DNA from: an uncultured Pseudomonadota bacterium
GTDB taxonomy: Bacteria; Pseudomonadota; Alphaproteobacteria; RF32; CAG-239
Direction of reading: 5' to 3'
Length of the DNA: 42,140 nucleotides
Assembly (NCBI GenBank): GCA_949295025.1
Contig: CASFJK010000011.1
Location: 1 to 42,140 of the forward strand
The position numbers and the translations under genes were made by a program. The notes under the pieces are model-generated. The model did not search any database. It had not been told where the DNA came from and saw only the letters and a program-made list of their open reading frames with translations. Positions 26,448 to 33,838 of the stretch are shown piece after piece. The first letter of the stretch is position 1, and each line of letters begins with the position of its first letter.

Positions 26448-26495
26448 AATGGTGCCGGTTATGTGACTCGAACACACGACCCACGCATTACGAAT
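26448..26495. repeat. Left attachment site: truncated tRNA-Thr 3' end
   Basis: Matches 33761-33808 with a single difference (ATGTGAC against ATATGAC). It stops at the anticodon loop and then diverges, so it cannot fold as a tRNA. Confidence 0.9.
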
Positions 26496-26615
26496 CTCTG
26501 GGTCATCTGTTTAACAGAATTTAATTAACATATTTTTATATTGATATTTCAAATAATTGAGTTTATATTACCATTATCAGAATTTAATGCAAGTTATTTG
26601 TTTTTAATAAAAATA

Positions 26616-26634
26616 GTAGCCCCAGAGTAGCCCC
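26616..26634. promoter_or_regulatory. Left pair of integrase arm-site-like octamers
   Basis: GTAGCCCC occurs at 26616 and again 11 bases later at 26627, ending one base before the integrase ATG. The same tandem arrangement lies inside the right end (33695-33713). It may bind the integrase arm domain and could also repress its own translation or transcription. Confidence 0.55.
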
Positions 26635-26635
26635 A

Positions 26636-27844
26636 ATGAACAATACGACAAAAACACAAAACTTTACCGAAGCTTTTATCGCCCACCTACCACCTGCAGA
26701 AAAAGGCAAGCGTTATCTTGTAAAAGATGCCAAAAACCCTGCTTTATTTTGCAGAGTTACCGAACTTGGGACAAAATCTTTTGTTGTATATAAGAAATTT
26801 CAAGGAAAACCCATTAAAGCCACTTTAGGGAAACACCCTGAAATGAGCGTTCTTTCTGCACGAAAAAAAGCTGCTGAAGTACTTGCATTGTTTGCGGAAA
26901 ACAAGAATCCCAATGTTGAAAAAAGAAAATTATGCAACAACATTACCCTGAAAGACTTATTCAAAGATTACATTGAAAAACACGCAAAAGTTTACACAAA
27001 AGAGCGAACCTTAAAAGGCAATCAAGATACGTATCGCCTATATTTAAGTAAATGGAGCAACAGACAAATAAAATCCTTGTCAAAAGTTGAAATAGAATCT
27101 GCATTAATAAAACTTAATGAAACAAACGGAATTCATGCCGCCAACAAAGCTTTGACCCTACTCCGCCATGTTATAAACAAAGGTATAGAATGGGGTTTAG
27201 ACTTCCCAAATCCAACCATCGGCATAAAAAAATATCGCACACAATCAAGAGATAGATTTCTGAAACCTGAAGAACTACAGCGCTTTTTTAAAGCCCTTCA
27301 GGAAGAGCCGAATGTCATATTTAAGAATTACTTTTTGATTTCATTATACACAGGGCAAAGAAGAAGCAATGTTTTATCAATGCGTTGGGAAAACATAAAC
27401 TTTGAGCAAAATACTTGGTACATTCCCGAAACCAAGAATGGCGACCCTTTAACAGTCCCTCTTGTTTCTCAAGTGGTTGACATTCTTCAAGAGATGCCGT
27501 GTGTATCTGTATGGGTATTTCCCAGCGCGACGAGCAAATCCGGACATATTGAAGAACCGAAAAAGGCTTGGCACAAAATTTTAAAAAGAGCTCAGATTGA
27601 AAACTTAAGAATTCACGACTTAAGAAGAACTCTCGGTAGTTATCAAGCCATTGAGGGCACCAGTCTTAATATCATAGGCAAAAGCTTGGGACATAAAAGC
27701 CAACAAGCGACAGCCATATATGCAAGACTGAATCTTGACCCAGTTAGAGAATCTATGAAAAAAGCCGTTTCCTTGATGGATAAATACAAAGAAAGTGATA
27801 ATATCTCTATATTACCCCAAGAAAAAAGAGAGAAAAATGCCTAA
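26636..27844 (+). CDS. Tyrosine recombinase / integrase
   Basis: Catalyses site-specific integration and excision of the surrounding element at tRNA-Thr. The 402-aa protein has an N-terminal arm-binding domain of the DUF4102 type (~residues 10-95, with T-L-G-K-H-P-E-M-S-V), a core-binding SAM-like domain (~100-190) and a catalytic domain with R243 (T-G-Q-R-R-S-N-V-L), K267 (T-K-N-G-D), H327-x-x-R330 (H-D-L-R-R), H353 (L-G-H-K) and Tyr362 (I-Y-A-R-L). All catalytic residues are present. No Shine-Dalgarno is visible. It overlaps the KAP NTPase gene by eight bases. Confidence 0.95.
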   Translation: MNNTTKTQNFTEAFIAHLPPAEKGKRYLVKDAKNPALFCRVTELGTKSFVVYKKFQGKPIKATLGKHPEMSVLSARKKAAEVLALFAENKNPNVEKRKLCNNITLKDLFKDYIEKHAKVYTKERTLKGNQDTYRLYLSKWSNRQIKSLSKVEIESALIKLNETNGIHAANKALTLLRHVINKGIEWGLDFPNPTIGIKKYRTQSRDRFLKPEELQRFFKALQEEPNVIFKNYFLISLYTGQRRSNVLSMRWENINFEQNTWYIPETKNGDPLTVPLVSQVVDILQEMPCVSVWVFPSATSKSGHIEEPKKAWHKILKRAQIENLRIHDLRRTLGSYQAIEGTSLNIIGKSLGHKSQQATAIYARLNLDPVRESMKKAVSLMDKYKESDNISILPQEKREKNA

Positions 27845-29294
27845 AAATTACGCCAACATATATAAATTAAGCAAACAAGATTTTGAAAATGAAACCCAAA
27901 ATTTATGGGCAAATTCTATTCCCAATGCTCAAGCAAATGCAGAGATGCTTACCCAAGAAATTTGCAATGAAGAAACTCCTTTTGTGCTCTCTGTAGAAGC
28001 ACCATATGGAATGGGAAAAACATACTTTTTTACTCGGTTTTGTGAGCATCTTAAAAAAAATGGAATACCTTGTATCTATATTAGTGCGTGGGAAAATGAT
28101 TATGCTCCCTCTCCTTTTTTGTATTTGCTGAAAGAAATTCTCAATTTTTTTGATGAAGAACTTTCTCCAACAACAAAAAGCAAAATCACTACTCTTAAAA
28201 AGAAGGGTATTGAAGTTGGAAAGAAATTATTATCTTCAATATCAATACAATGTAGTGGAGTAGAAGTAAATTTGGGTTCTTTTATATCTTCTTTTTTAAA
28301 AGATACAGATGAAGTTCAACATTTCAAAAATGAGTTTTCTAAAAAAATCAAACAATTACATAAAAATGCGCCTCTTGTGATTATAGTCGATGAATTAGAC
28401 CGTTGTCGCCCAGATTATGCTCTTAAAACAATAGAAATCATGAAACACTTTTTTGACATAGACCAAGTATTTTTTATTATTCCCATCAATAAGGGGGCTA
28501 TTTCTGAGGCTGTTTCCGCTGTTTATGGGCAAACAGTAGCACGACAAGGAGAAAATTACTTGAGAAAACTTATTGATAAAGAAATTATCCTTCCTAGCCC
28601 CAACAAAGAATCCTACAAACAAATTGCTTCCTCAGTAATAACAAAAGAAAAATTAAAACTAGCTTTAGATAATGGCTTCATTGAAGACAATGACAATTAT
28701 AACGGCTTTGCAATTATTGCCGAACATTTTGGGAACTATGCGAAACAATGTGCACTTACCTTCAGAGAAACTGTACAAGTATGTGAAACCTTTATCCAAT
28801 ACGCAAACAACATTCCTCACAAAATCCATATAGAATACCTCATTTTTCTATTATGTAATAAATTTAAGAAAAATGACATACTAACAACTTCTACCCTAAC
28901 CAAAGAACACCCTTATTCAGGGGTAGATGCTCCCCGTGTCTATGGGAAAAGAAAGATTTTATGTATTAATGGTTTATTGGATGCGACAAATGGATTCCAA
29001 TATGATAGGTGGCACTTCAATTATTCACAACTTTGCCGTTCAAGTGAGAATTTTTCTAGCTACAATGAATTTTACGGATATATTGAAACATGCAGAAAAC
29101 TTATGGAAGAAGGGAAAGCCCGTGAAGGAGATAGCAGAATAAAAAATCTTACAGACGTTATCAATAAAGCAGAACAAGAAGTAAAAGAATACCAGCGCAA
29201 ATTTGGTTCTTGTGATGAAGATGAGCAAAATAAAGCTTATTATGAAAAAATTGTTGGCAACAATTTATTAATCTTCAGTTCTGAAACTCAGTAA
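27837..29294 (+). CDS. KAP-family P-loop NTPase, possible defence gene
   Basis: A 485-aa predicted NTPase. Walker A is A-P-Y-G-M-G-K-T (residues 55-62) and Walker B with the KAP signature is V-I-I-V-D-E-L-D-R-C-R-P (181-192), followed by L-K-T-I-E-I-M-K-H-F-F and a sensor-like F-F-I-I-P. Between the two motifs I see no strong membrane segments, unlike many KAP proteins. KAP NTPases are STAND/AAA-related and recur in anti-phage systems such as Qat. I chose ATG 27837 behind an AG-rich site; it overlaps the integrase end by eight bases, so translation is probably coupled. A hairpin terminator follows. Confidence 0.85.
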   Translation: MPKNYANIYKLSKQDFENETQNLWANSIPNAQANAEMLTQEICNEETPFVLSVEAPYGMGKTYFFTRFCEHLKKNGIPCIYISAWENDYAPSPFLYLLKEILNFFDEELSPTTKSKITTLKKKGIEVGKKLLSSISIQCSGVEVNLGSFISSFLKDTDEVQHFKNEFSKKIKQLHKNAPLVIIVDELDRCRPDYALKTIEIMKHFFDIDQVFFIIPINKGAISEAVSAVYGQTVARQGENYLRKLIDKEIILPSPNKESYKQIASSVITKEKLKLALDNGFIEDNDNYNGFAIIAEHFGNYAKQCALTFRETVQVCETFIQYANNIPHKIHIEYLIFLLCNKFKKNDILTTSTLTKEHPYSGVDAPRVYGKRKILCINGLLDATNGFQYDRWHFNYSQLCRSSENFSSYNEFYGYIETCRKLMEEGKAREGDSRIKNLTDVINKAEQEVKEYQRKFGSCDEDEQNKAYYEKIVGNNLLIFSSETQ

Positions 29295-29309
29295 ATAAAT
29301 ACAAACCAT

Positions 29310-33668: not shown

Positions 33669-33694
33669 ATTTTTAACCTTATTTAATAAAAAAG

Positions 33695-33713
33695 GTAGCC
33701 CAACGGTAGCCCC
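33695..33713. promoter_or_regulatory. Right pair of integrase arm-site-like octamers
   Basis: GTAGCCCA at 33695 and GTAGCCCC at 33706, period 11 bases, same orientation as the pair at 26616-26634 next to the left end. Confidence 0.55.
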
Positions 33714-33724
33714 AGATAAAATTC

Positions 33725-33753
33725 AAGGGCTTGGCAATTTTCTGCCAGCCCTT
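33725..33753 (-). terminator. Element-supplied terminator for tRNA-Thr
   Basis: AAGGGCTTGGCA pairs with TGCCAGCCCTT with one bulge, eight bases downstream of the encoded CCA of tRNA-Thr. It differs in sequence from the hairpin beyond the left repeat, so the tRNA acquired a new terminator with the element. Confidence 0.6.
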
Positions 33754-33762
33754 ATAAATCAA

Positions 33763-33838
33763 TGGTGCCGGTTATATGACTCGAACACACGACCCACGCA
33801 TTACGAATGCGTTGCTCTACCAACTGAGCTAAACCGGC
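33763..33838 (-). tRNA. tRNA-Thr (anticodon CGT)
   Basis: Complete cloverleaf on the minus strand. Acceptor GCCGGTT pairs with AACCGGC, D arm AGCTCAGTTGGTAGAGC, anticodon stem ACGCA/TGCGT with loop TTCGTAA (anticodon CGT), T arm with GTTCGAGTC, discriminator A and encoded CCA. Its 3' part is the right attachment site of the integrated element; since CGT reads only ACG codons, the gene is kept intact by the duplicated 3' end. Confidence 0.97.

What the first reader, a model, noticed from the sequence alone, without database searches (positions are those of the whole stretch)
26448..33808. A 7.4-kb integrative element in tRNA-Thr with an unusual gene set
A 48-bp direct repeat of the tRNA-Thr(CGT) 3' part brackets integrase, KAP NTPase, three lipoproteins, a Rep-like gene, a zinc-finger-like gene, an AlpA-like gene and one unknown. 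There are no phage structural or conjugation genes. This combination does not match a standard phage, ICE or PICI layout that I know.
Basis: partly seen in the sequence, partly recalled or inferred. Interest (0 to 1): 0.75.

Follow-up and report, generated by a model that had tools for sequence, protein, structure and literature searches.

The report
tRNA-Thr mobile element with RNA leader
A small piece of mobile DNA inserted in a gut bacterium's tRNA gene carries its own insertion and copying genes plus changeable cargo, and its lipoprotein cargo sits behind a folded RNA leader that is also found in front of many surface-protein genes in related bacteria.

Summary
A 48-bp repeat (47/48) of the tRNA-Thr(CGT) 3' part brackets nine genes. 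Two congeners carry the same element at the same tRNA; in three others the site is uninterrupted. Most element genes are 96-100% identical at DNA level while flanking host genes are 76-85%: recent transfer. The gene set is not a one-off: HUH-type Rep genes occur in 16 of 127 host-family genomes (own included), and 10 of 13 sister loci tested are bracketed by tRNA repeats. The element most likely excises with Int/AlpA, replicates by its HUH Rep and hitch-hikes between cells; cargo is exchangeable and partly defence-like.

It covaries strongly (61 copies), carries a terminator, occurs in 102 of 127 family genomes and mostly precedes exported proteins (79 of 92, against 135 of 408 other genes). 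It resembles, below threshold, Rfam sRNA-Xcc1, whose members, in the loci tested, precede genes such as antirepressors and SymE and are complementary to their ribosome-binding sites, like phage C4 RNA. That the window's leader works this way is inference.

The parts
26448..26495 (.). left attachment repeat (fragment of the tRNA-Thr 3' part)
   Evidence: single copy in empty sites
33761..33808 (.). right attachment repeat, within the intact tRNA
33763..33838 (-). tRNA-Thr(CGT), integration target, intact
   Evidence: Rfam RF00005 66.6 bits
26636..27844 (+). tyrosine integrase with Arm-DNA-bind_3
   Evidence: Pfam PF00589 2.8e-26, PF13356 1.3e-11; 97.8-98.3% DNA identity in G080/G007
27837..29294 (+). 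KAP P-loop NTPase, defence-candidate type PDC-S20; variable cargo (85.5% in G080, no match in G007)
   Evidence: PF07693 2.3e-34; PADLOC PDC-S20 4.1e-65
29401..30546 (-). large lipoprotein-like gene, 381 aa; identical in G080, replaced in G007
   Evidence: no usable family match
30641..30991 (-). small lipoprotein B (paralogue of A)
   Evidence: phrog_7441 6.2e-12
30994..31341 (-). small lipoprotein A, first gene behind the leader RNA
   Evidence: phrog_7441 7.1e-16; 31-36% to small proteins of Klebsiella, Salmonella, Cronobacter and other phages
31390..31539 (-). core of the structured leader RNA (helices P1, P2, P3, P5)
   Evidence: model R1 151.6 bits (this copy is itself in the model); covariation on 61 copies; sRNA-Xcc1 RF02221 38.7 bits, below its cut-off of 53
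31540..31575 (-). extra hairpin (P0) just 5' of the core
   Evidence: 36 nt upstream of 61 copies: mean -8.54 versus -3.06 kcal/mol for mononucleotide shuffles
31375..31393 (-). intrinsic terminator stem of the leader (CCCACC/GGTGGG), T-run follows
   Evidence: helix 8, 90.7% of cells paired, 3 of 6 pairs with changes on both sides; TTTT after it in 101 of 103 copies (no control, AT-rich DNA)
31395..31402 (-). anti-RBS segment GAACATCC of the leader
   Evidence: complementary to 31344-31351
31344..31351 (-). ribosome-binding region GGATGTTC of lipoprotein A
   Evidence: sequence
31732..32388 (-). HUH-type Rep, 218 aa (HIH at residues 133-135; Y185, K188 invariant in 16 sequences)
32381..32584 (-). 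Cys-rich 67-aa protein, conserved neighbour of rep
   Evidence: 48-55% identical in L057, L062, L063
32577..32783 (-). AlpA/excisionase-like HTH_17 protein
   Evidence: PF12728 1.3e-11; TIGR01764 3.8e-08
32877..33668 (-). unknown 263-aa protein
   Evidence: 95-97% aa in G080/G007, 25% to an L057 gene; NCBIfam BID-domain family 18 bits, cut-off 45; model unusable, pLDDT 39

Best explanation
This is a small integrative element of the hitcher kind, one of a family in gut Alphaproteobacteria. Int recombines the 48-bp core at the 3' part of tRNA-Thr and leaves the tRNA intact; the AlpA-like protein acts as excision factor or activator; the excised circle is replicated by a single-tyrosine HUH Rep (rolling-circle type). 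It has no recognised packaging or conjugation genes, so transfer must use a helper (conjugative element, phage) or uptake. The KAP/lipoprotein slot is exchangeable cargo, most likely against phages. The lipoprotein operon begins with a ~190-nt structured leader RNA that carries a terminator and an 8-nt segment complementary to the lipoprotein's ribosome-binding site; it most likely keeps expression low by termination plus antisense masking, in cis or as a released small RNA, in the manner of phage C4 RNA. Shown: element borders, empty and occupied sites, recent transfer between species, element family, cargo exchange, RNA structure by covariation, terminator stem, link to exported proteins, copy-specific complementarity as a set average. 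Inferred: excision, replication mode, transfer route, defence role of the cargo, antisense control.
Confidence: 0.7

Rival explanations
1. The leader is a ligand- or stress-sensing riboswitch/attenuator for envelope proteins, not an antisense RNA: the conserved core binds a metabolite or protein and sets the terminator.
For: Very conserved internal core (GGATGTCGG..AATAAGGC..GCCGAGCCG), terminator, alternative helices P4 and P6 pair in 99.7% and 93.0% of cells, common theme of exported proteins, no 5' target mimic.
Against: P4 shows no covariation beyond shuffles (219 of 500 reach it), P6 little (24-38 of 500 on the covariation measures). Copy-specific complementarity to the own ribosome-binding site exceeds mismatched pairings. 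Downstream genes share export, not an evident pathway.
Confidence: 0.35
2. The structured sequence is the single-strand origin or nick site used by the HUH Rep, and its RNA features are incidental.
For: It lies next to rep in five elements (window, L051, L052, L068, L069; 143-152 bits) and weakly (29-34 bits) in L058-L061; about 0.25 strong copies expected by chance in 18 elements (rough estimate).
Against: Of the 80 listed loci fetched by RNA motif only L208 (the G080 element itself) holds a rep gene of this family. A gene follows in 92 of 103 copies, and the terminator stem covaries.
Confidence: 0.07
3. The element is a phage satellite (PICI- or P4-like) packaged by a helper phage.
For: Size, Int + AlpA-like regulator + replication gene + defence-type cargo resemble satellites (recalled). 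Weak PHROG match of the AlpA-like protein to a terminase small subunit (E 0.011), probably a shared HTH.
Against: No usable match in the head, packaging or tail classes. Scans of viral contigs with the Rep and KAP proteins, which find close relatives only, gave none; no Rep match in phage records.
Confidence: 0.2
4. The element is an integrative mobilisable element moved by a conjugative helper, with the HUH protein also acting as relaxase.
For: Rep-like HUH enzymes serve as relaxases in some integrative elements, and BID domains are secretion signals for alphaproteobacterial T4SS (both recalled); orf263 has a sub-threshold BID-domain match (E 0.0022, 18 bits, cut-off 45). No packaging genes.
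Against: No mobilisation family matched the HUH protein; no oriT was looked for or identified; the BID match covers only 57 residues and is far below its cut-off.
Confidence: 0.25

Closest known systems
sRNA-Xcc1 (Rfam RF02221)
   Same: Same order of 3' elements; the window RNA is the second best Rfam match of the region (38.7 bits). In 22 of the 23 correctly placed true loci read, an ORF follows in the same direction within 200 nt, and pairing 5' arms are seen in many folds by eye; model R1 finds 3 of 20 true loci end to end (25.4, 22.0 and a non-significant 15.3 bits). A paper notes sRNA-Xcc1 upstream of symE in integron cassettes (PMC12444791, passages).
   Different: Below the family's cut-off of 53 bits; 17 of 20 true loci are not found by R1. 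True loci precede SymE- or antirepressor-type genes among others, the window family mostly exported proteins. 5' mimic of the target only in true loci.
C4 antisense RNA of phages P1 and P7 (RF01695)
   Same: A structured RNA upstream of its target with segments complementary to the target's ribosome-binding site; GG at the start of the processed form (PMC5320573, passages; our copies start with a conserved GG).
   Different: No match to RF01695 at E up to 1. In the window family one conserved anti-RBS segment instead of two variable loops.
Hitcher elements / IMEs / tycheposons
   Same: tRNA-integrating, tyrosine integrase, replication gene, changeable cargo, no own transfer machinery (PMC11389934, PMC5704250: search listing and start of abstract only; the rest recalled).
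   Different: No relaxase or packaging gene recognised; Rep without relatives in the phage and plasmid collections.
Rolling-circle Rep proteins (pMV158 RepB, circovirus, parvovirus and microvirus initiators)
   Same: HUH motif, downstream Tyr and Lys, similar predicted fold.
   Different: No significant sequence similarity; no helicase domain; encoded by an integrative element.
PADLOC PDC-S20 (KAP NTPase defence candidate)
   Same: 4.1e-65 over residues 11-353.
   Different: Candidate class; function here untested.

Membership tests
Integrative element (tRNA site-specific) | att repeat, intact target, empty sites in relatives | tested here: met
Integrative element (tRNA site-specific) | excised circular form | not testable with these tools
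   no reads; the own assembly shows each repeat copy only in the integrated place
ICE (conjugative) | type IV secretion and relaxase genes | tested here: not met
   only a sub-threshold BID-domain match of orf263
PICI / P4-like satellite | packaging or capsid-redirecting genes | tested here: not met
   no usable match (terminase small subunit E 0.011 for the AlpA-like protein); small unknown genes could hide one
HUH endonuclease (Rep) | His-x-His motif and downstream catalytic Tyr | tested here: met
   H133, H135, Y185, K188 invariant in 16 sequences; catalytic role not tested
HUH endonuclease (Rep) | fold of the nuclease domain | tested here: inconclusive
sRNA-Xcc1 RF02221 | score at or above the gathering cut-off (53 bits) | tested here: not met
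   38.7 bits
sRNA-Xcc1 RF02221 | transcribed as an independent small RNA | not testable with these tools
   no RNA data for this organism
C4 antisense RNA RF01695 | covariance model match | tested here: not met
   no match at E up to 1; none at gathering in 20 true sRNA-Xcc1 loci
C4-like antisense mode of action | complementarity to the own target's ribosome-binding site above mismatched pairings | tested here: met
   for both sets (set averages); 5' mimic only in RF02221 loci
C4-like antisense mode of action | the RNA represses its target | not testable with these tools
   needs reporters
PDC-S20 defence candidate | profile match over the NTPase domain | tested here: met
PDC-S20 defence candidate | protects against phage | not tested
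   needs plaque assays

The most novel reading that the evidence does not exclude
The leader is a new class of regulatory RNA, sister to sRNA-Xcc1, and both descend from mobile-element immunity RNAs of the C4 type: in prophages and integrons the form is kept in front of antirepressors and SymE, while in gut Alphaproteobacteria it was domesticated into a regulon that controls surface lipoproteins and autotransporter-like proteins, and is still being traded by small HUH-Rep integrative elements, where it keeps exclusion lipoproteins silent until needed.
Probability: 0.35. Interest if true: 0.78.

Novelty: new variant of a known kind. Interest (0 to 1): 0.6.

Why it matters
The element adds a family of small integrative elements with their own replication gene but no recognised transfer genes in an uncultured gut clade, with empty and occupied sites side by side. 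The leader matters more: a strongly covarying RNA in 102 of 127 genomes that sits mostly before exported-protein genes gives a testable control layer for surface proteins in these bacteria, and it suggests that Rfam's sRNA-Xcc1, described in the papers seen as a trans-acting, virulence-regulated sRNA, is part of leaders that are antisense to the gene behind them.

Tried and rejected
Chance tRNA pseudogene: rejected, since the repeat is single-copy in empty sites. Unique element: rejected. Integron attC reading of the RNA: dropped, as copies are mostly dispersed over contigs, not arrayed. RNA tied to mobile elements in general: of the 80 listed loci of the motif scan (92 or more existed; the scan stopped at its limit) one holds rep (L208) and two an integrase homologue (L187, L204). 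Leader plus lipoA/B also occurs without integrase or rep in the 5-8 kb held of L143, L164 and L193, so it is not element-specific. RNA in phages: 0 motif hits in viral contigs; no leader in the two phage regions that carry the related lipoprotein. Rep search in viral contigs, phages, plasmids: nothing; PDB sequences: one match at E 0.29; class sample: 3 of 385 genomes, own included. Structure of orf263: pLDDT 39, not used. P4 and P6 helices: high pairing but no or marginal covariation, so not claimed as shown. Target mimic by the 5' half in the window family: not found.

Limits of counts. The exported-protein test uses a home-made hydropathy/lipobox rule on 103 copies; 11 had no gene call and were left out of the 92; copies are related and partly chosen by motif, so the Fisher value overstates certainty. 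TTTT after the terminator (101 of 103) has no control and the DNA is AT-rich. Copy numbers are lower bounds, as at most 24 candidates per genome were scored. Model R1 used 14 sequences: 13 of the first 20 RF02221 hit loci (window copy included) plus one from L051. The covariation alignment used 61 of the 81 copies listed (L208, L218 and the 18 lowest-listed dropped). The antisense test on RF02221 used 20 of 25 loci: two were misplaced at contig ends (L246, L256) and three usable ones (L245, L254, L258) were also left out. The nine peptides were chosen by me. Of 15 sister rep places, 14 were fetched (G092 not), 13 tested for repeats (L070 not). L059-L061 and L062-L063 are close to each other, so sister loci are not all independent. 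Weak family matches disregarded: see the observation check; also lipoprotein A to a Cor exclusion protein (E 0.031, first 20 residues).

Literature. Searches for the RNA, the clade (79), the KAP gene (107) and the element type listed no paper that, by title and start of abstract, describes this leader or element family; only open PMC papers were searched. PMC2996969, PMC12444791, PMC2864571, PMC5320573 and PMC12189769 were seen as passages only; others as search listings.
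Full report
1. What is there. The window lies in a 1.68-Mb, 43-contig genome (G000). Records that share its RNA motif are mostly Alphaproteobacteria MAGs, many from deer, yak, sheep or horse gut, and Azospirillum sp. CAG:239, so the host is most likely of that clade (inference). A 48-bp direct repeat, 47 of 48 identical, lies at 26448-26495 and 33761-33808. The right copy is the 3' part of the only tRNA-Thr(CGT) of the window (33763-33838, minus). Nine genes lie between.

2. Mobility. Seven genomes of the genus were searched. G000, G007 and G080 carry the element at this tRNA. In G056, G088 and G072 about 55-61 bp of left flank, one repeat copy and the rest of the tRNA run on without interruption; further left these genomes differ. 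G022 has a single-copy tRNA followed by other DNA. Between G000 and G007/G080, integrase, rep, lipoproteins A/B, the Cys-rich gene and orf263 are 96.5-100% identical at DNA level and alpA 92.7-97.6%, while flanking host genes are 76-85%. The element moved between species after these had diverged.

3. Cargo exchange. In G080 the KAP gene is 85.5% identical amid near-identical neighbours; in G007 KAP and the large lipoprotein are gone, and 412-aa and 172-aa genes without Pfam or PADLOC matches stand in the slot. The leader RNA is 81% identical in both, against 97-99% for its two neighbour genes; it is 96% identical to a copy in L193, where leader and lipoproteins A/B sit without integrase or rep in the 5 kb held. 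So KAP and the leader are units of exchange.

4. A family of elements. The Rep protein has relatives in 16 of 127 family genomes, own included, 18 places. In 10 of 13 sister loci tested a direct repeat overlaps a tRNA and, with its second copy, brackets the rep gene (Met, Val, Val, Val, Val, Lys, Gly, Leu, Met, Thr; 4.9-12.0 kb). L062, L066 and L067 gave none; L070 was not tested. Homologues of this integrase occur in 8 of 14 sister loci, and the Cys-rich or AlpA-like genes sit beside rep in some. Cargo in related elements includes an OLD/AAA_15-type ATPase, type IIG restriction-modification-like genes, a SocA/Panacea gene and a pentapeptide-repeat gene; five of ten proteins scanned had no match in either library.

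6. KAP and lipoproteins. KAP matches the defence candidate PDC-S20 at 4.1e-65. Lipoproteins A and B match phrog_7441; A is 31-36% identical to small proteins in the ten listed of 13 phage records, which in the two records read lie near the tape-measure or another tail gene. Some phage lipoproteins act in superinfection exclusion (recalled); the same role here is a guess.

7. The leader RNA. The 206 nt at 31355-31560 (minus) fold at -79.6 kcal/mol, z -5.85 against 200 shuffles. Of Rfam, besides the tRNA, only sRNA-Xcc1 stands out (38.7 bits, E 0.00042, cut-off 53). RF02221 itself finds 92 of 127 family genomes at E up to 0.01, one over the cut-off, and 0 of 14 control genomes. A model from 14 copies, the window's included (R1), finds the RNA in 102 of 127 family genomes, 124 of 154 order genomes (all listed ones of the same family) and 18 of 385 class genomes, 14 of them outside the family and six of these above 110 bits. 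Counts reach 24 per genome, the number of candidates scored. On a MAFFT alignment of 61 copies 94.0% of cells pair, 21 of 41 pairs have changes on both sides, 273 such cells, covariation 0.332 against 0.158 (sd 0.005) shuffled and at most 0.076 for slid versions. The variable helix P2 carries much of this. Helices P4 and P6 would compete with P5, P1 or the terminator; they pair in 99.7% and 93.0% of cells but covary not at all or marginally. A further hairpin precedes the core.

8. What follows the leader. Of 103 distinct copies 92 have a gene within 230 nt, 79 of these with a lipobox or signal-peptide-like start (49 lipoprotein, 30 other) and 13 without; 11 have none. In 408 other genes of the same loci the figure is 135. 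A first sample of 30 loci gave 26. Exceptions include DNA-methylase-like and glycosyltransferase-like genes (by eye).

9. How it may work. In the window, GAACATCC of the leader (31402-31395) is complementary to GGATGTTC (31351-31344) just before lipoprotein A. Over 91 copies the leader's 3' arm binds its own ribosome-binding region better than that of other copies (-14.07 versus -12.95, sd 0.16); 62 of 92 have GGATGT there. True sRNA-Xcc1 loci (39 of 398 phylum genomes over the cut-off, 0 of 14 controls; 20 of 25 fetched loci tested) show the same (-21.18 versus -18.03, sd 0.68), and their 5' part also mimics the target (3.70 shared 6-mers versus 1.28, sd 0.35). Of nine peptides from these loci scanned, six matched Pfam: SymE twice, Bro-N, KilA-N, P22_AR_N, Rha. 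This is the logic described for phage C4 RNA (passages). In one Xylella genome a C4 and an sRNA-Xcc1 annotation lie about 230 bp apart, and sRNA-Xcc1 homologues are transcribed in another (table and passages of PMC12189769). In the window's family the mimic is absent (1.39 versus 1.25, sd 0.14), so its mechanism is at best a variant. Strong copies of the RNA lie next to rep in five elements (three sets if G000/G007/G080 count once), weak ones in four more, against about 0.25 expected.

10. Verdict. The element is real and mobile by comparative evidence, and a new member of the broad kind 'small integrative hitcher'. The leader is a new variant of a known kind (sRNA-Xcc1/C4-like leaders), not a member of either Rfam family by score. 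Confidence: element 0.95, HUH replication 0.75, leader as cis-regulatory RNA 0.9, antisense masking 0.45, defence cargo 0.6.

Noticed in passing
L071-L222: The leader RNA is a family-wide element with 1-7 copies in most genomes and 15-24 (24 being the scoring cap) in G073, G082, G089, G094, G104 and G106; why some genomes expand it is open.
   Followed up: partly
L235-L259: Rfam sRNA-Xcc1 members lie upstream of genes such as SymE, Bro-N, KilA-N, Rha or P22 antirepressor types and are, as a set, antisense to their ribosome-binding sites, a C4-like arrangement not stated in the passages seen.
   Followed up: partly
window 31390-31545 against L051/L052/L193: The leader of the window element has been exchanged: 81% identical to the sister elements but 96% to a copy in L193, while both neighbour genes are 97-99% identical to the sisters.
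   Followed up: partly
window 32877-33668: orf263 has a sub-threshold match to the BID domain of T4SS effectors (E 0.0022, 18 bits, cut-off 45), which would matter if the element is mobilised by a T4SS.
   Followed up: no
L187, 3993-5502: A leader copy lies next to an integrase gene (39% identical to a sister integrase, 2e-90) in an Alphaproteobacteria MAG, perhaps another element.
   Followed up: no
G000:C9:10019-11164 (L002): A second integrase (35% identical) near tRNA-Arg(CCT) in the same genome, perhaps another integrative element.
   Followed up: no
window 98-1420: Cys-rich repetitive protein gene; a protein of similar look follows a leader RNA in L149 (by eye only).
   Followed up: no
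L179, L196: The RNA motif also occurs in records titled Terriglobia and Candidatus Paceibacterota, but these two of 80 give no model hit: probably chance.
   Followed up: partly
L157, L170, L222: Leader copies in front of DNA-methylase-like genes, an exception to the exported-protein rule (naming by eye).
   Followed up: no
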